A DNA stretch of 25,849 nt from a virus, in the IMG/VR virus record IMGVR_UViG_3300046821_000030, positions 1 to 25,849 of that record; one strand, written 5' to 3'. Below the pieces are notes generated by a model that saw only the letters and a list, made by a program, of their open reading frames with translations, searched no databases and was not told the origin of the DNA. This document shows, piece by piece, positions 8,268 to 22,310 of this stretch; the stretch's first letter is position 1; each line of letters opens with the position of its first letter. The position numbers were made by a program, and so were the translations under genes.

Positions 8268-8678
8268 TCAAGCACCATTCATCAATTTCTGCCAGTCAAT
8301 ATAGTTCTTTATTGCGAAGGAAAGATCCTTAATACTGTCTAAAGATTTGCCAACATATATCAACTGAACTTCTATCGAGTTTAATGTTGTACAGATTGTG
8401 ATGTACTTTTTATCGGCATAAATTTGTGATTCTACTTCAGTCTTTGAATCCCATCTGTATTCTGATTCAAACTTGTAAAACTTGTAGAGTGTTCCATACA
8501 TCTCACGCTGCTTATCTTCGGAAGACTTTTTGGCGGCATGTAAAGTAGCCAGAAGCTTCAAAAGAGACTGATGAACCGCGGCATACTCCATTAATTTTGT
8601 GGAGATATTATTGGCGTCAAATGTAAGTTTCTTTTCCAAATAAGTCTGCAACTGTAGAAACTCTTCTTCACTAAGCAT
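8268..8678 (-). CDS. uvsY: Recombination mediator UvsY
   Basis: This 136-residue protein matches T4 UvsY (137 residues), which loads the UvsX recombinase onto gp32-coated single-stranded DNA. The C-terminal segment LDSIKDLSFAIKNYIDWQKL lines up with T4 LDAIKSRGFAIKHIQDMRAF. A central SADK-like YADKKYITI block precedes it, and the whole protein is helical. The ATG at 8678 has AAAGGA 12 bases upstream. Its partners UvsX, gp32 and UvsW are all encoded in this window. Upstream on the minus strand lies the TnpB locus, whose putative RNA end approaches the uvsY leader, so the insertion may affect uvsY expression. Confidence 0.85.
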   Translation of the reverse strand: MLSEEEFLQLQTYLEKKLTFDANNISTKLMEYAAVHQSLLKLLATLHAAKKSSEDKQREMYGTLYKFYKFESEYRWDSKTEVESQIYADKKYITICTTLNSIEVQLIYVGKSLDSIKDLSFAIKNYIDWQKLMNGA

Positions 8679-8689
8679 TTAATTATTAT

Positions 8690-8885
8690 CCTTTATGAGA
8701 CACGAAGTGGCTCTATCTGTATGTAATCATCGACTATAAAATTAGTCGTATAGGTTATACCTACTTATTTAACGCTTCATCGCTTGTGCAGTCATTATCC
8801 TTACAGATAATAACTGTCTTACTTATGCTCGGCGTTTGTTTTGGTGTAGTGATTCCTGCACCAGAGAGGGTTAAACCCTCAGATA
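8690..8885 (-). ncRNA. Putative omega-RNA (TnpB guide RNA scaffold) at the tnpB 3' end
   Basis: TnpB proteins use an RNA made from the 3' end of their gene and the element's right end. Five hairpins follow one another here on the minus strand: GAGGGTTTAACCCTC (8866-8880), GGTG/CACC around 8842-8863, an 11-bp stem at 8789-8816, CGACTA/TAGTCG (8731-8748), and GAG-CAC/GTG-CTC (8697-8713). In the 8789-8816 stem one position is U-G in minus-strand RNA but a C-A mismatch on the plus strand, which favours the minus RNA. Three hairpins lie inside the tnpB coding end and two in the gap before uvsY. If the scaffold ends near 8697, the guide would read the uvsY ribosome binding site and start. Function is inferred from family knowledge. 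Confidence 0.5.
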
Positions 8886-9957
8886 AAATATTCTTCGCTG
8901 CATTTACATCCCTGTCGTGTATAGCTCCGCAGGAACATGACCAGACTCTATGGTGTAACTGAAGATTTTTATTAATCTGACCACAGCAAGAACAAGTCTT
9001 GGACGAGGGAAAAAATCTTCCAACCTTGATAAAGTCTTTACCATACCACTTACTTTTATACTCCAACATACTTATAAATGTACTCCAGGACTGTTCCGAG
9101 ATCTTTTTAGAAAGTCTTCGATTTTTGAGCATTCCAGAGATGTTTAAAGACTCCACACAAATCTTGTCAAAGGCTGTCACCAATCTCTTGGACAGATTAT
9201 GCTGGAAGAACTGTCTTTGATTAGTGACCTTCTGATGTAGGCGAGCAATCCTCTTACGGTTCCTCTCATATCTTGAGGATCCCTTAGTTTTCTTGGCAAA
9301 TCTGCGTTGTTCTAATTTTAACTTAGCTTGGTTCTCACAAAAGTTAAAATTATGTTTAGTTCCATCTGATAGTGTCACGAAGTCCTTGACACCAAGATCT
9401 ATTCCAACTGCTCTCCCTGTCTTAGGAAGATGATTGACATTTTCTTCTACCGCTATGCTGACAAAATACTGTCCAGCAGGGTTTTTAGAAACTGTACAAG
9501 AAAGTAATCTTGAGGACTTAGGAATATGTCTGTCAATAACTATGTCTACAAGACCAATCTTTTCTAAACGAATCTTGGAGCACCGGATATCGAACTTTTT
9601 GTTAGGAAGTCTATAGGAATTGTGTTTAGATTTCTTTTTAAAAGAAGGTCTTCCTACTTTAGATTTCCTTTTGGTATTAAAGAATTGACTTTTAAACTCC
9701 TGAATATCTCTATCTTTTTGTTGTAAGGCTCCGGAAGATACTTCTGACAAAAAGGAATGGACTTTCTTAGGGTTATTATATTTAATATAAGGTGCCGCAG
9801 AAGTATTAAAAGACTCAACAAAGAGATTCCATATAAATCGGACACATCCAAATGTTTGATTAATCTTTAAGATCTGATCATTAGATGGAAAGATTCTATA
9901 TTTGTAAGACTTATTCTGGATCACGAAAGTATTTATCACAACAATTTTGAGGATCAT
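8761..9957 (-). CDS. tnpB: TnpB, RNA-guided nuclease of the IS200/IS605 family
   Basis: This 398-residue protein is a TnpB, the RNA-guided DNA nuclease family ancestral to Cas12. The N-terminal block YKYRIFPSNDQ followed by CVRFIWNLFVE is typical. The RuvC residues are present: Asp187 in GIDLGVKD, Glu269 in CVESLNISGM, and Asp348 or Asp350 in HDRDVNAAKNIL. The zinc-binding Cys are C322/C325 and C341/C343; the second pair is CxC rather than the usual CxxC. The length is normal, so it looks intact. The C-terminal LTLSGAGITTPKQ segment is encoded within the predicted RNA scaffold. The ATG at 9957 has no Shine-Dalgarno; a GTG at about residue 12, just before the conserved block, is an alternative. 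No TnpA is in the window. Confidence 0.93.
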   Translation of the reverse strand: MILKIVVINTFVIQNKSYKYRIFPSNDQILKINQTFGCVRFIWNLFVESFNTSAAPYIKYNNPKKVHSFLSEVSSGALQQKDRDIQEFKSQFFNTKRKSKVGRPSFKKKSKHNSYRLPNKKFDIRCSKIRLEKIGLVDIVIDRHIPKSSRLLSCTVSKNPAGQYFVSIAVEENVNHLPKTGRAVGIDLGVKDFVTLSDGTKHNFNFCENQAKLKLEQRRFAKKTKGSSRYERNRKRIARLHQKVTNQRQFFQHNLSKRLVTAFDKICVESLNISGMLKNRRLSKKISEQSWSTFISMLEYKSKWYGKDFIKVGRFFPSSKTCSCCGQINKNLQLHHRVWSCSCGAIHDRDVNAAKNILSEGLTLSGAGITTPKQTPSISKTVIICKDNDCTSDEALNK

Positions 9958-9958
9958 T

Positions 9959-10720
9959 TAGGGCACAGAGTGGACCGTACCTGACCGATAGATCTAGTTA
10001 TTCACAATGAGTTAAGGCGTAGCCTAGTGTGATCTGAACGCAGTGAGGATCACACATGATATGAGAATGTATTAGACTGTGCCTAGAACATCCAGAGGAC
10101 CAATGAAGAGTATTTACATTGGATTTAAAGAATCTTGACAAGACCCTTGTGGTCTTAGGGCGCAGCCCTAAGAATTGTCAATAATATGGAGTGGAGCGAC
10201 TAGACAGAGTGATTGTCTATCAGGATCAGATAGATTCTCTGATGGAGCTTCACGGGAGAATTATTTGTAAGAATTTCTCGAGGAGGAAGTCTGACTGAGG
10301 AAGAAGTATTTGTTTTGGATTTTCGCTTCGCTCAAGTCACTGCGTGACTGTTCGTTTATTTTTTATAAGAATTAACGACTAACATTAATTAACAGAGCTT
10401 CGCCTTTACCTATATTCATGGAGCTCGTTTTGAATCGAGACCCTCATTTGATTTATAACTGATTATCTCTTCAGTTCTTGTCAAATGATTGAATATAAGT
10501 CAGGGATCGGCACTAAGTTCATTACTTAGTCAACAGGAATATCCGATAGCCTTTACCTCTGAACCCCTCAACACTTGCCTTTGAGCTTGGGTGTTTTGCA
10601 TCTCTGCATCATTCCAACTCGGGGTTCCTCAACATACAGACAGATTTGTTCTTACTCTAATTCCCGAGCCTGTATGTTATATGTTCTTCACTTTATAGTC
10701 CTCACGAAACATCATGGACT
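9959..10720. ncRNA. Large structured non-coding region of unknown class, upstream of tnpB
   Basis: No credible gene is seen here, but the DNA is packed with stems. Examples are 9959-9968/10077-10085 (9 bp, one bulge, enclosing a domain), 10027-10034/10048-10055 (8 bp), 10135-10140/10176-10181 enclosing the strong hairpin 10154-10172, 10201-10219, 10225-10243, and 10445-10451/10481-10487 enclosing 10457-10462/10471-10476. Others are 10506-10510/10543-10547 enclosing 10512-10530, 10561-10567/10621-10627 (7 bp) enclosing smaller hairpins, 10631-10639/10670-10678 (9 bp), and 10697-10701/10716-10720. Wobble pairs favour the minus strand in some stems and plus in others, so the strand is open. Candidates are an IStron-type group I intron, a giant phage RNA such as GOLLD or ROOL, or a new class. 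No tRNA or clear group I/II core was found. Confidence 0.5.
10334..10366 (+). terminator. Terminator-like hairpin inside the structured region
   Basis: AGTCAC TGC GTGACT forms a 6-bp hairpin (10335-10349) followed on the plus strand by GTTCGTTTATTTTTT. This would suit termination of a rightward transcript covering the left part of the structured region. The spacing between stem and T-run is longer than ideal, and the hairpin may simply be one of the RNA's many stems. Confidence 0.3.
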
Positions 10721-10770
10721 TACTACTATTTATTTACTTACTCGATTTACTTTCTCTGTTTCTTACAAAC

Positions 10771-10779
10771 ATTATATCA
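10771..10779 (-). promoter_or_regulatory. Extended -10 promoter candidate reading into the structured region
   Basis: The minus strand reads TGATATAAT, an extended -10 element (TGnTATAAT), directly after the stop of the small basic gene. No good -35 is present, which extended -10 promoters can tolerate. It would start an RNA near 10764 running leftward into the structured region and tnpB. It overlaps the TTGAT noted as a possible insertion target. Confidence 0.4.
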
Positions 10780-10782
10780 ATT

Positions 10783-11058
10783 TTAATTTTCAGTATCTTC
10801 AGAAGATTTTTGACTTCTAAGAGACTCTTGGACTTTATTTACATCAATCTTTCCATTTTCAAACTTATATTTTTTAGGATTCGGTCTATAATCTGGTCCG
10901 ATGATTTTCTTCCATTTCTCTACACGCTGTGTATAAGTATTGGCTTTCATAACATCATACCCATGGAGCTTTTTCTTTCTCTTATCAGCTTCTTTTTCTG
11001 ATGTGAGTTCTTTGGCTCTCTTATCTTTATTGTGCTTATTCCAATTCATACGTTTCAT
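10783..11058 (-). CDS. Unknown small basic protein
   Basis: This 91-residue protein is very rich in Lys, Arg, Asn and Glu (for example HNKDKRAKELTSEKEADKRK) and has one more conserved-looking segment, YTQRVEKWKKIIGPDYRPNP. It has no cysteine, membrane segment or known motif; a nucleic-acid-binding or structural role is possible but unsupported. A GAGGATATT ribosome binding site precedes the ATG. It is the first gene of the leftward arm, next to the divergent promoter gap, and would be immediately upstream of uvsY if the TnpB block were absent. Confidence 0.55.
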   Translation of the reverse strand: MKRMNWNKHNKDKRAKELTSEKEADKRKKKLHGYDVMKANTYTQRVEKWKKIIGPDYRPNPKKYKFENGKIDVNKVQESLRSQKSSEDTEN

Positions 11059-11167
11059 AATATCCTCTTTTTATTTCAAAGCAAATAATTTTAAATGTCG
11101 TCCTTGGATGTTTTTTCGTTACTTGCTCAGCTTAGTTAGTTCTATATATGTATGAAGAAGGTAATCT
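11059..11167. promoter_or_regulatory. Divergent intergenic region between the two arms
   Basis: This 109-base gap separates the leftward and rightward gene arms and must supply promoters or leaders for both. On the plus strand TTGCTC followed after 16 bases by TATATG is a weak sigma70-like candidate ending before the GAAGAAGGT ribosome binding site of gp46. On the minus strand AAATAAAAAG lies near the start of the small basic gene. No strong consensus promoter is evident on either strand. Confidence 0.35.
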
Positions 11168-12910
11168 ATGTACATAAAATTGATCAGCTTAAAGTTTAAG
11201 AACATCATGTCGTATGGAAACTACGTCACGGAGTTCAAGTTTGATGAAGGTCTATCTTTGATCTCAGCTAAGAATGGATGTGGAAAGACTACTATTCTCG
11301 AAGCACTATCATTCAACCTATTTGGTAAGCCTTACAGAAATATAAAAATCTCTGAGCTTATCAATAGAAAGAATAAGAAGAATCTCTACACAGAATCTCT
11401 ATTCCAAATTGACGGTAATAACTACACTGTTGTAAGAACTCTTGGACCAGCTAAACTTGAGATATACAAAGATGGTGTGATTCAAGAAAATCTTTCAGCA
11501 AAGAAGTTAGACCAAGAAGAAATCAATAAGCTTCTCGGAGTAGATTATAATATCTTCAAACTTATCATAGCCTTGTCTGTAAACTACAACAGACCTTTCC
11601 TATCATTAGGTGCTGGTGATAAAAGAGATGTTATGGAATCTATCTTCAATATCAAAGTATTTGGTGAGATGCTGTCCAAGTTGAAGAAAAGAATGTCTGC
11701 AGTTAAGAGTGAGAAGATGATCGTTGATGGATCTATCAAAACTCTTGAAGCATCCATTAAAGTACTTCATGGTCAAATCAAACAGATAGAACATAGTATG
11801 GACGACTTCGATTCTAAAAGAAATGCAGATAGTGATAGAGTAAAGAAGCTGCTTAAAGATGCAGATAAGAAACTAATATCACTTGAGAAATCTGCCAAAG
11901 AGTCTAAACAAAAGATGGAAGAGATAATAGTCGTTGATGTATCTGAAGAACTTTATGAGGTTCGTACAGAAATTTCAAAACTAGAATCTAAAGTTGCTGA
12001 ACTTAAAAAGCAACTGGCATTCTTTGATAAGCATGATGAGTGTCCTATGTGTGGTGTCGAAATGTCGGAAGATCATAAGAATAAGGAACTCTCAAAATTA
12101 AATAATGAGATTGATTCACTTCTACCTATGATTGATACGTTAAGAGCTACAAAGGCTCTCTATGACTCTCAAAACCGGCAGAACAATGATCTCATTCAAG
12201 ACAGAATGAATCACAGTAATCACATCTCAGAGTTAGTTTCCGAAGCCAAGACGGTTCTCAAAACAATCGAACTTTATAAGGCACAACTAACCGAGATAGA
12301 AACTAGAACATATTCATTGGACACCACAAGCATAAAAGATGAGTATGATACTCAGATTGCAGAGTATAAAAGAATAACTGCTCTGAGCGCCCAACTTCAA
12401 TCAGATATGATATTGAATGAGTACGCTGCCAAGATGTTAGATGATAATGGAATCAAGTCGTACTTCTTCAAGCGATTAATCCCTATTCTAAATAAGAAGA
12501 TAAATGAGTATCTGGAACTATTTGAACTTCCAGTTAAAATATCATTTAATGAGTTCATGGAAGAAAAGATCAGTATGCAATTGTCCAGTGATCTGGATAT
12601 ATCTTACATGAGCTTCTCTGAAGGCGAAAAGAAAAGAATAGATATTGCAATTCTTCTTTCCTTCATCGAGACTACAAAGATACTTTCAAATTGGAATTGC
12701 AATGTCATTATGTTTGACGAGGTACTTGATAACGCCACTGATTCGGAAGGACTTGATAAGTTGCTTTCATCCATAAAAGATTTGACTACAAGAGATTCCA
12801 AGCTTTGCTCATATATAATCTCACACAGAGATGCAGATTCTGATCTTTACGACAGAAAAGTTACAATAAAGAAAGTTGCTGGATTTTCCAAACTACAAGA
12901 GACCAAATGA
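11168..12910 (+). CDS. 46: Recombination nuclease subunit gp46 (Rad50/SbcC-like ATPase)
   Basis: This 580-residue protein is the ATPase subunit of the T4 gp46/gp47 complex, which resects DNA ends for recombination-dependent replication. The N-terminal Walker A is AKNGCGKTT (34-42), followed by long coiled-coil arms (about 165-285 and 300-400) around a zinc hook CPMC (Cys292, Cys295). The C-terminal ATPase half has the ABC signature FSEGEKKR and the Walker B segment NVIMFDEVLDN. Length is close to T4 gp46 (560). GAAGAAGGT precedes the ATG. The gene overlaps the gp55 start by ATGA, beginning an operon of overlapping genes that also contains the partner gp47. Confidence 0.95.
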   Translation: MYIKLISLKFKNIMSYGNYVTEFKFDEGLSLISAKNGCGKTTILEALSFNLFGKPYRNIKISELINRKNKKNLYTESLFQIDGNNYTVVRTLGPAKLEIYKDGVIQENLSAKKLDQEEINKLLGVDYNIFKLIIALSVNYNRPFLSLGAGDKRDVMESIFNIKVFGEMLSKLKKRMSAVKSEKMIVDGSIKTLEASIKVLHGQIKQIEHSMDDFDSKRNADSDRVKKLLKDADKKLISLEKSAKESKQKMEEIIVVDVSEELYEVRTEISKLESKVAELKKQLAFFDKHDECPMCGVEMSEDHKNKELSKLNNEIDSLLPMIDTLRATKALYDSQNRQNNDLIQDRMNHSNHISELVSEAKTVLKTIELYKAQLTEIETRTYSLDTTSIKDEYDTQIAEYKRITALSAQLQSDMILNEYAAKMLDDNGIKSYFFKRLIPILNKKINEYLELFELPVKISFNEFMEEKISMQLSSDLDISYMSFSEGEKKRIDIAILLSFIETTKILSNWNCNVIMFDEVLDNATDSEGLDKLLSSIKDLTTRDSKLCSYIISHRDADSDLYDRKVTIKKVAGFSKLQETK

Positions 12911-13446
12911 CTGAAATAATAGAACCGATAGAAAAAGTTAAGAAGAAGAAAAAAGGTTACTTTGATAACGAACACATGATAACCATGATGACGTTAAAGT
13001 TAAAGATCAGGGACTACCTCTTCATACAATTTCTCAAGGAAGAGAACGGTGAACCGACTAGAAAGAGAGGATTCAAACTTATTCAAGTGGATCCTACTCT
13101 TGACTATGATGGTGAAACTATTACTCTTGCTGAACTCAACAACCGTTATGATAAAGTGAATAACGAAGTTGGTAAGCTTTATGCTAAGGTTGCTGAAGGT
13201 ATGATGAAGAGACCAAACTTTATCAATTACCCACCAGATCAAAAGGTCGACATGATCTCCGATGCTTTGTTCTATATGTCCAGAGCTGGTGAGCGTTATG
13301 ATATTAAGCAACCAAATCCATTTGCATACTTCTCTCAGATTACATTCCATTCTTATCTCCAAAGTATTAAGAATATGAAGAAGAGAATCGGTATGCTTGT
13401 GAGTGTTGATCACCTAGAAAACTTTGACGGCTCTGGTGAAGAATGA
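12907..13446 (+). CDS. 55: Late transcription sigma factor gp55
   Basis: This 179-residue protein resembles T4 gp55 (185 residues), the small sigma-like factor that directs host RNA polymerase to late promoters. The clearest region is residues 95-160: VAEGMMKRPNFINYP, MISDALFYMSRAGERYD, NPFAYFSQITFHSYLQSIKN, then MKKR. It matches the T4 IAEGLSKRFNF, MIADGIEASIKGLHNFD and [23 protein letters not shown] blocks. A basic, lysine-rich N-terminus precedes it. The start overlaps gp46 (ATGA) and the stop overlaps gp47. Presence of gp55 fits the TAAATA motifs in front of the minus-strand genes. T4 also keeps this gene near 46 and 47. Confidence 0.88.
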   Translation: MTEIIEPIEKVKKKKKGYFDNEHMITMMTLKLKIRDYLFIQFLKEENGEPTRKRGFKLIQVDPTLDYDGETITLAELNNRYDKVNNEVGKLYAKVAEGMMKRPNFINYPPDQKVDMISDALFYMSRAGERYDIKQPNPFAYFSQITFHSYLQSIKNMKKRIGMLVSVDHLENFDGSGEE

Positions 13447-14483
13447 AAGTCGCATTGATAACAGATACTCATTTTGGAGCTAAGAAAGGTAATGAAGTTT
13501 ACCTAGAATCTCAGATGCGATTCTTTATCAATCAGTTTATACCGTACCTTAAGAAGCACGGTATAGACACTATCATCCATCTTGGTGACTTCTTTGACAA
13601 TCGGATCAATATAGATTCGAGAGTCCTAAACAATGTCATTGACTTGTTTGAAACTCATCTGAAAGATTTTAAAGTTCATGTTATAGTTGGAAATCACGAT
13701 TCATATTTTGACACAACTATTGAAACCAATTCGGTCAAAACATTAAACACATTTTCAAATGTAACAACCTATAGTAACATTAGTGAAATTGAACTTGGTG
13801 GAAAGAAGATATTGCTTTGTCCTTGGGTTACCAAGAAAGATCAATTCATTTCTACTCTTGATCAGTATAGTTCAGATGTTTGCATGGGTCACTTTGAAAT
13901 CGCCAAGTGTCCTATGTTTAAAGGCCAACCTAACGAACATGGATTAGAGCAATCTATATTCCTATCAAGATTCAAGTTAACTTTATCTGGACACTTCCAC
14001 ACTAGATCAGAGACTAAGTTTAATGGCAATAGATTAATCTACATTGGCAATGCGTTTCAGATGACTAGAAGTGATATTGATGATGAGAGGGGGTTTTCAA
14101 TCTTGGACCTTTCTACATTAAAAATCAAGTTCGTAGAAAATTCTGAATCTATGAAATATGTTAGTTATAACTATCCAGAAGTTTTGACAAAAGAAAATGT
14201 GTACAATAATCATGTAGACATCTCTGTTGTTTATGATGAACGGTATGATGAGGCAGCTGTCCAAAGTTATATCGAAAGATTAGAATCTTTTGGACCAGCT
14301 TTACCAATAAATCTGAAGACTATAAATAGAATCACGATTGAAACTACTGATGATATAGAATCAACAAGTATTTCTGATCTTATAAAAGAGTATTTGCAAA
14401 AATCTGATATTGAAATAGACAGAAGAGACCCTGTTGAAAAATTGATATTGGGCTTATATGAAGAATGTAATTCGGAGAATTGA
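13443..14483 (+). CDS. 47: Recombination nuclease subunit gp47 (Mre11/SbcD-like)
   Basis: This 346-residue protein is the nuclease subunit that pairs with gp46. It carries the calcineurin-type phosphoesterase motifs in order: DTHFG with Asp8 and His10, GDFFDNR with Asp49, GNHDSY with Asn84 and His85, CMGHFE, and SGHFHTR. These residues bind the two metal ions. The IYIGNAFQMTRSDIDDERGF segment is also typical of phage and bacterial SbcD proteins. Length matches T4 gp47 (339). It overlaps gp55 by ATGA, and thioredoxin follows with no gap, so the proteins are probably made from one message. Confidence 0.95.
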   Translation: MKVALITDTHFGAKKGNEVYLESQMRFFINQFIPYLKKHGIDTIIHLGDFFDNRINIDSRVLNNVIDLFETHLKDFKVHVIVGNHDSYFDTTIETNSVKTLNTFSNVTTYSNISEIELGGKKILLCPWVTKKDQFISTLDQYSSDVCMGHFEIAKCPMFKGQPNEHGLEQSIFLSRFKLTLSGHFHTRSETKFNGNRLIYIGNAFQMTRSDIDDERGFSILDLSTLKIKFVENSESMKYVSYNYPEVLTKENVYNNHVDISVVYDERYDEAAVQSYIERLESFGPALPINLKTINRITIETTDDIESTSISDLIKEYLQKSDIEIDRRDPVEKLILGLYEECNSEN

Positions 14484-21389: not shown

Positions 21390-22310
21390 ATGCACTGTGT
21401 TTATAAAATAACTTTTATTGAAAGAGAAAGACAGAATATCTATCCATGTTACTACATTGGATCAAAAGGTAATGTGGATGTTCGTGATGGTGTGATGTAT
21501 AGAGTTGGTAGAAAGAAACCTTATTGGGGAAGCCCGTCAGATAAGTCTTATCCAGAAGCACTTAAAGAACCAAAGAAAATGGAAGTACTGAAATACTTTG
21601 AAGATTACACTGAATGTTTGTCATATGAACGTGCTGTTCATATTGAAAATGATGTGATAATAAATCCAAAATATTTTAATAAGAATTATGCTGTAGAAGG
21701 AACATATAGCCATCCAGATTACGGATCATTTAAACATAATGAAACTGGTAAGACTATTAGACTGCCATTAGATCACGCAATGGTTTTAAATGGAACTTAT
21801 GTTGGTTCTACTAAAGGTGTTCATCAAACAGAAAAGTGTAAAGAGAAGAAGAAACGATTTGGTAAAGATAATCATTTTTATGGAAAAGAGCATACTACAG
21901 AATCTAAGAAAAAAATTGTTGATGGTCAAAATGAATGGAAAACAAAGAATCCAGAAGCGTATGCTGAACATATAGAAAATGTTAGGGCTCATATGACCAG
22001 AGTCAGTCGAGGAGTTCCAAAATCAGAAGACCATAAGAATAAAATTGGCCGTAAAGGTATGGCGATGATTAAGAATATTGAGACTGGTGAAGTTAAAAGA
22101 TTGTATATGACTTCTGATGAGTATATTAATAGAGATAAGAAACTTTGGAAAACACCTTATCAAATTTCATGTGATAATGGTACTGTTCCAAAGGTAAAAT
22201 GTGATCATTGTGGGAATATGTTCAATAGTGCCATGCACACCAGATGGCATGGAGATAACTGTAAGATGAAGCCAAAAGATTCATCCAAGTTAATAGACAT
22301 AATAGAATAA
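21390..22310 (+). CDS. GIY-YIG homing endonuclease with NUMOD3 motifs and a zinc finger
   Basis: This 306-residue protein looks like a free-standing phage homing endonuclease. The N-terminus has the GIY-YIG layout: VYKITFI, CYYIGSKGN (20-28), then PYWGSPSDKSYPEA. The middle has NUMOD3-like DNA-binding repeats, HFYGKEHTTESKKKI and a second RGVPKSEDHKNKIGRKG. The C-terminus has a zinc finger of the form C-x2-C-x8-H-x3-H-x3-C (271-291) ending RWHGDNCK, common on phage homing enzymes. Such proteins cut a site in related genomes lacking the gene, so the gene spreads by recombination. It sits between uvsX and gp41, flanked by a terminator and a promoter. AAGG lies before the ATG; no clear promoter of its own was seen. 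Confidence 0.85.
   Translation: MHCVYKITFIERERQNIYPCYYIGSKGNVDVRDGVMYRVGRKKPYWGSPSDKSYPEALKEPKKMEVLKYFEDYTECLSYERAVHIENDVIINPKYFNKNYAVEGTYSHPDYGSFKHNETGKTIRLPLDHAMVLNGTYVGSTKGVHQTEKCKEKKKRFGKDNHFYGKEHTTESKKKIVDGQNEWKTKNPEAYAEHIENVRAHMTRVSRGVPKSEDHKNKIGRKGMAMIKNIETGEVKRLYMTSDEYINRDKKLWKTPYQISCDNGTVPKVKCDHCGNMFNSAMHTRWHGDNCKMKPKDSSKLIDIIE

What the first reader, a model, noticed from the sequence alone, without database searches (positions are those of the whole stretch)
8761..9957. Intact TnpB RNA-guided nuclease inside a T4-like phage late/recombination cluster
The protein keeps all three RuvC acidic positions, the zinc-ribbon cysteines and full length, although no TnpA is nearby. TnpB is usually linked to IS200/IS605 transposition. 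In a phage core region beside uvsY it may act as a homing-type nuclease that cuts related phage genomes lacking the element, as GIY-YIG and HNH enzymes do in T4. The second cysteine pair is CxC rather than CxxC, a small deviation to check.
Basis: partly seen in the sequence, partly recalled or inferred. Interest (0 to 1): 0.8.

Follow-up and report, generated by a model that had tools for sequence, protein, structure and literature searches.

The report
Phage TnpB acting like homing endonuclease
A T4-like phage carries an intact RNA-guided DNA-cutting enzyme (TnpB) with its own guide RNA, wedged next to a recombination gene and without its usual transposase; relatives in other phages suggest that it spreads by cutting sister phages that lack it, much as classical homing endonucleases do.

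Summary
The minus-strand ORF 9957-8761 is a full-length TnpB with RuvC residues D187/E269/D350 and a zinc ribbon of C322xxC325 and C341xC343. The CxC pair is a recurrent natural variant.

The protein sits in a phage-only TnpB clade (45-55% identity; best sampled bacterial hit 42%). Complete relatives carry an IS607-type serine TnpA, not the IS200/IS605 Y1 TnpA. Most, including the window, lack TnpA, yet orphan tnpBs are under strong purifying selection (dN/dS 0.06-0.19).

Of 20 T4-like contigs with divergent uvsY/gp46, only the window has tnpB between them; its nearest relative sits on the other side of uvsY, inverted. In a related phage pair the occupied allele's guide matches the empty allele over 25 nt. 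A different TnpB lineage in Bacillus phages shows exact occupied and empty alleles with TAM TTTAT.

Best explanation: a guide-programmed, free-standing homing unit that lost its transposase (0.7). Cleavage and the window's TAM are untested, and no empty allele of its own site was found. TnpB homing, and TnpB-only insertions in T4-like phages, were already known.

The parts
8761..9957 (-). TnpB ORF as listed (398 aa, ATG at 9957)
8761..9924 (-). likely real tnpB coding region, start GTG at 9924 (codon 12); homology with all relatives begins here
   Evidence: inferred start
9397..9399 (-). RuvC-I aspartate D187 codon
9151..9153 (-). RuvC-II glutamate E269 codon
8908..8910 (-). RuvC-III aspartate D350 codon
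8929..8994 (-). zinc ribbon C322xxC325 ... C341xC343
9930..9937 (-). GATAAATA, T4-late-promoter-like octamer 5 nt before the GTG; could also be, or overlap, the target-adjacent motif at the left end
8723..8858 (-). omegaRNA (reRNA) scaffold overlapping the 3' end of tnpB and its stop codon
   Evidence: model trained without the window: 29.2 bits, E 0.0039; z -4.6
8731..8748 (-). terminal omegaRNA hairpin CGACTAATTTTATAGTCG
8723..8730 (-). right-end tail ATGATTAC (relatives: GTAACTAT, GTAACTAC, CTGATTAC)
8703..8722 (-). predicted guide, ATACAGATAGAGCCACTTCG, taken from the uvsY leader
   Evidence: inferred
8268..8678 (-). uvsY, neighbouring gene whose leader supplies the guide
11168..12910 (+). 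gp46-like recombination nuclease subunit, divergent neighbour used as anchor for empty loci

Best explanation
The locus is an intact TnpB-omegaRNA unit that has lost its transposase and persists in T4-like phages as a free-standing, guide-programmed homing element. tnpB and the overlapping omegaRNA are transcribed towards uvsY, probably late. TnpB binds the scaffold 8858-8723; the next nucleotides (8722 downwards, uvsY leader) are the guide. In a co-infected cell the RNP would cut a sister genome in which the uvsY leader is uninterrupted, and the phage's UvsX/UvsY/gp46-47/gp32 repair would copy tnpB into the break. The occupied genome is spared because the insertion separates target from TAM. 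Shown by sequence: intact enzyme, omegaRNA, guide position, absence of tnpA, a phage-only clade, selection, and target match to empty alleles in relatives. Inferred: expression, cleavage, TAM, and copying by recombination.
For: Intact TnpB; AlphaFold model pLDDT 86, best PDB matches ISDra2 TnpB 8h1j (TM 0.77/0.82) and ISFba1 TnpB. A covariance model from 16 relatives, 10 of 21 pairs with two-sided changes, finds the window's omegaRNA as best hit in 105 kb. The window plus 32 other viral TnpBs form a 99% SH-aLRT set with no bacterial row. No Y1 TnpA in 22 records; IS607 TnpA in 7 of 26 records, remnants in 2, none in the window. dN/dS 0.06-0.19, mostly orphan pairs. Nineteen T4-like loci with divergent uvsY/gp46 lack tnpB there; the nearest relative (55%) sits on the other side of uvsY, inverted. 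The guide of G006 matches the empty site of G009 for 25 nt without mismatch; G009/G010 guides match each other's genomes with 2 mismatches in 18. Bacillus BSP21 versus phiNIT1: exact insertion after TTTAT, guide identical to the empty allele.
Against: No empty allele of the window's own site was found; its 16-nt guide has only chance matches in viral contigs. The TAM is unresolved: TAAATA abuts the left end, but three target sites in relatives read TGTAT. In the G006/G009 pair the left junction is not clean (about 76 nt without counterpart), so exact empty-site restoration is shown only for the other TnpB lineage. IS607 TnpA acting in trans could also move the element. The comparisons within the clade are all metagenomic contigs; the window is a fragment, so a tnpA elsewhere in the phage is possible.
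Confidence: 0.7

Rival explanations
1. An ordinary TnpB-only insertion sequence: a non-autonomous element moved in trans by an IS607-type TnpA in the host or a co-infecting phage, with TnpB only restoring lost copies.
For: Complete relatives have IS607 TnpA directly upstream; two loci keep TnpA remnants; G010 has an IS607 TnpA elsewhere in its genome. Element ends without tnpB occur in Bacillus phages such as SIOphi. TnpB-only insertions at different sites in T4-like Campylobacter phages were described as IS elements (PMC2853527).
Against: Most clade records have no TnpA of any kind. Passive transposition alone does not explain dN/dS 0.06-0.19 on tnpB. The left end of the window element is about 5 nt, leaving little room for a transposase site.
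Confidence: 0.2
2. A domesticated weapon: TnpB kept mainly to exclude competing phages, or to control uvsY expression in the way TldR represses flagellin.
For: The guide lies in the leader of a conserved recombination gene; a related large phage carries five tnpB copies and six stand-alone omegaRNAs, more guides than homing of one copy needs.
Against: RuvC residues are intact, unlike TldR. Sites differ between related phages, as for mobile elements. No stand-alone omegaRNA was found in the window. Marker exclusion is an expected by-product of homing.
Confidence: 0.06
3. A recently captured, inactive passenger with no present function.
For: Single copy in one metagenomic contig; expression not shown; no target found at DNA level.
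Against: Intact catalytic residues, intact omegaRNA fold, purifying selection in orphan relatives.
Confidence: 0.04

Closest known systems
ISDra2 TnpB (IS200/IS605, Deinococcus), PMC8612924
   Same: Same protein fold, omegaRNA overlapping the 3' end of tnpB, guide taken from the DNA flanking the right end; homing-like copying already proposed there.
   Different: Here in a lytic T4-like phage, no Y1 TnpA; complete relatives use IS607 TnpA; the left-end and target-site motifs seen here (TAAATA, TGTAT) are not the TTGAT of ISDra2 (the latter from my own knowledge).
IS607 TnpB with RAGATH-18 reRNA (ISFba1), PMC11061315
   Same: TnpB paired with an IS607 TnpA in complete relatives.
   Different: ISFba1 reRNA is separate from the coding sequence and its TAM is AGGAG; here the omegaRNA overlaps the coding sequence, no Rfam family matches, and NCBIfam IS607_TnpB scores 169 against a cut-off of 350.
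Free-standing homing endonucleases of T4 (segA-segG, mobA-mobE), PMC2988022
   Same: Intergenic cassettes beside replication and recombination genes (segA at uvsX, segE at uvsW), often without their own promoter; spread by cutting endonuclease-free relatives.
   Different: GIY-YIG or HNH proteins with a fixed protein-read target; here the target is read by an RNA whose guide is the insertion site.
TnpB-only ISCaje elements in T4-like Campylobacter phages CP220/CPt10, PMC2853527
   Same: TnpB without TnpA, at different sites in related T4-like phages.
   Different: Described only as IS200/IS605 insertions with target ATTTT; no omegaRNA, guide or homing analysis in the passages read.
TnpB gene drive on plasmids, PMC11870625
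   Same: TnpB removes copies lacking the element, so element-bearing copies take over.
   Different: Shown for IS-bearing plasmids, not in phages.

Membership tests
TnpB RNA-guided nucleases | OrfB/TNB domains with RuvC D-E-D and zinc ribbon | tested here: met
   second pair CxC, seen also in other TnpBs
TnpB RNA-guided nucleases | omegaRNA from the 3' end of tnpB with adjacent guide | tested here: met
   (structure and position; RNA itself not observed)
TnpB RNA-guided nucleases | RNA-guided DNA cleavage with a TAM | not testable with these tools
   needs biochemistry
IS200/IS605 element | Y1 tyrosine TnpA, or relatives with it | tested here: not met
   none in 22 records
IS607 element | serine TnpA next to tnpB | tested here: not met
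   absent from the window; present in complete relatives of the same clade
IS607 element | NCBIfam IS607_TnpB score above cut-off | tested here: not met
   169 bits, cut-off 350; IS200_TnpB 347, cut-off 425, also below
free-standing homing endonuclease (by function) | occupied and empty alleles in related phages, target intact only in the empty one | tested here: inconclusive
   met for related clade members and for Bacillus phages; window site empty in 19 distant relatives, but target not alignable
free-standing homing endonuclease (by function) | super-Mendelian inheritance in co-infection | not testable with these tools
   needs phage crosses
TldR (nuclease-dead phage TnpB) | degraded RuvC triad | tested here: not met
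   triad intact

The most novel reading that the evidence does not exclude
T4-like phages host a dedicated lineage of transposase-free TnpB homing units that move only by guide-directed cutting and phage recombination. They are expressed from late-promoter-like octamers at their left end and, in some large phages, are supplied with extra stand-alone omegaRNAs that aim one TnpB at several sites of competing phages.
Probability: 0.25. Interest if true: 0.82.

Novelty: new variant of a known kind. Interest (0 to 1): 0.6.

Why it matters
If right, phages use not only protein-read homing endonucleases but also RNA-programmed ones, whose specificity is rewritten by each insertion. That would give TnpB a transposase-independent way of life and a route from transposon accessory to inter-phage weapon. 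Bacillus phages with natural occupied and empty alleles (BSP21 and phiNIT1) make TnpB homing in phages directly testable in the laboratory.

Tried and rejected
Rfam over the window: no family at gathering score. The first search for a transposase used the IS200/IS605 Y1 family and found nothing in 22 records; upstream ORFs then showed that the right partner is IS607 serine TnpA. I first took TAAATA at the left end as the TAM because it recurs (21 of 30 against 51 of 246 other ORFs), but three target sites in relatives carry TGTAT instead, so it may be a late promoter; left open. Window guide as exact 16-mer in IMG/VR: 16 matches, none extending beyond chance and none in a T4-like context. A first placement of the guide at 8708 was corrected to 8722 by the covariance model. 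P0001 alone found almost no relatives in viral or genome contigs; alignments were needed. Megablast of the window against named phages: no match. Idea that L017 tnpB cleanly splits a homing endonuclease gene: both halves match phrog_3339, but about 50 residues are missing between them, so it is not an exact empty-site reconstruction. The reading of CxC as a defect was rejected.

Full report
Observation. The ORF at 8761-9957 lies on the minus strand and is a complete TnpB: Pfam OrfB_IS605, TNB and HTH domains, PHROG 506, NCBIfam guided_TnpB 289 bits. D187, E269 and D350 are present, as are C322xxC325 and C341xC343. The CxC pair occurs in 7 of 83 other viral and 3 of 74 bacterial TnpBs sampled. 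An AlphaFold model from an alignment of 36 sequences (pLDDT 86; only the last 31 residues, which overlap the omegaRNA, are disordered) matches ISDra2 TnpB 8h1j (TM 0.77/0.82) best, with ISFba1 TnpB among the top three. Homology to relatives starts at codon 12, so the start is probably GTG 9924 (inference).

Surroundings. The record is a 25,849-base fragment with T4-like genes: portal gp20, protease gp21, UvsW and UvsY on the minus strand; gp46, gp47, DNA polymerase, UvsX, gp41 and gp32 on the plus strand (UvsX). tnpB sits at the divergence point, with 82 nt between its stop and the uvsY start. No Y1 TnpA and no serine recombinase is in the record.

The guide RNA. The last part of tnpB plus the gap to uvsY folds far better than shuffles (z -4.6). 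Aligning right ends of relatives shows a conserved scaffold, a terminal hairpin, an 8-nt tail (GTAACTAT-like), then unrelated sequence. The consensus fold has 21 pairs, 10 with two-sided changes. A covariance model built from 16 relatives without the window finds the window at 8858-8723(-) as best hit in 105 kb (29.2 bits, E 0.0039; second hit the sister contig L193). With filters off the next hit in 8500-11200 is 12.6 bits. The guide therefore begins at 8722: ATACAGATAGAGCCACTTCG, in the uvsY leader.

Relatives. TnpBs at 45-55% identity come only from viral contigs; the best in genomes of 84,980 bacterial and archaeal species by the patterns used is 42%, in named phages below 42%, in plasmids about 41% or less. 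In a 107-row tree the window pairs with L033 (99) inside a 33-row set (99) that is entirely viral; bacterial sampling was limited to top hits. Complete relatives (L034, L047, L048, L051, L057) have an IS607-type TnpA directly upstream (for the L048 protein NCBIfam transpos_IS607 201 bits, cut-off 110). L062 keeps a shortened one, L045 and L077 remnants, the rest none. Of the 29 related records checked, 14 carry the T4-like UvsW domain and 12 the T4 portal; many of the others are short fragments.

Function of orphans. Pairwise dN/dS of tnpB, last 35 codons left out, is 0.06-0.19 in ten pairs, most of them orphans. An NTAAATA octamer, like the T4 late promoter, lies within 90 nt upstream in 21 of 30 clade members against 51 of 246 other ORFs (p 1e-7). 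In the window, L041, L042, L044 and L066 it stands 5 nt before the start codon. Whether it is promoter, TAM or both is open.

Occupied and empty loci. Nineteen T4-like loci with the same divergent uvsY/gp46 pair have no TnpB between the genes. The closest relative, in contig G005, which is syntenic with the window over the DNA-replication genes, lies on the other side of uvsY in the opposite direction. G003 has its copy beside the DHH gene, G001 (L017) between two pieces of a homing endonuclease gene, and the 202-kb G002 has none. So the element is mobile within the core region and not fixed at uvsY.

Guide against target. In G006 and G009 (75% identical over the alignable part) the G006 element occupies a site that is empty in G009, and the G006 guide equals the empty site for 25 nt. 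Guides of G009 and G010 match each other's genomes with 2 mismatches in 18. All three targets follow TGTAT. Left junctions in these pairs are not clean. In another TnpB lineage, Bacillus phages BSP21, SPG24, BSP9 and BSP18 are occupied between portal and protease, while phiNIT1 and many close relatives are empty. Insertion follows TTTAT exactly, and the guide is identical in the empty allele of phiNIT1.

Mechanism. These facts fit Karvelis et al. (PMC8612924): TnpB cuts the allele without the element, and recombination copies it in. T4 homing endonucleases do this with UvsX, gp32 and phage nucleases (PMC2988022), all neighbours here. What differs is that the target is read by RNA and rewritten at each insertion. 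Cleavage, TAM and inheritance bias remain inferred.

Prior knowledge. TnpB-only insertions in T4-like Campylobacter phages are known (PMC2853527), as are TnpB gene drive on plasmids (PMC11870625) and IS607 TnpB nucleases with TAM AGGAG (PMC11061315). I found no paper in the held library on omegaRNA-guided homing of TnpB in T4-like phages; subscription papers and preprints are mostly not held.

Noticed in passing
IMGVR_UViG_3300042560_001323 (243 kb): L196-L207, e.g. L199:3041-3183, L200:12831-12971 and 13407-13539, L201:12491-12632, L202:9509-9648, L206:97-242: One large T4-like phage carries five tnpB copies and six stand-alone omegaRNA copies with different guides. Two of the six have left-end fragments nearby, so some may be internally deleted elements rather than dedicated guides.
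   Followed up: partly
window 9958-10780: About 820 nt without a gene, folding better than shuffles (z -2.9), with several GNA-triloop mini-hairpins, e.g. TCTTAGGGCGCAGCCCTAAGA at 10153-10173. No Rfam match and no relative in the fetched loci; the related L024 has GGTGCGAAGCACC just upstream of gp46.
   Followed up: partly
window 21390-22310: A homing endonuclease gene (phrog_7504) sits between uvsX and gp41, so protein-read and RNA-read homing-type genes coexist in this phage.
   Followed up: no
L193:15582-19556 and contig G005 21312-22849: In the sister contig, DNA polymerase gp43 and helicase gp41 are each interrupted by about 1.5 kb holding endonuclease-like ORFs, possibly introns or inteins.
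   Followed up: no
L237:1001-1220 (Bacillus phage SIOphi) and KKP_4047, 4048, 4050: 220-bp remnants hold both ends of the BSP21 tnpB element with tnpB deleted, MITE-like; in SIOphi after the same TTTAT.
   Followed up: partly
L032 (Chryseobacterium phage MA9V-2, 1489-2655) versus L235 (MA9V-1): A tnpB lies directly upstream of the phage DNA polymerase in MA9V-2 and is absent from its close relative MA9V-1: another occupied/empty pair in a core region.
   Followed up: partly
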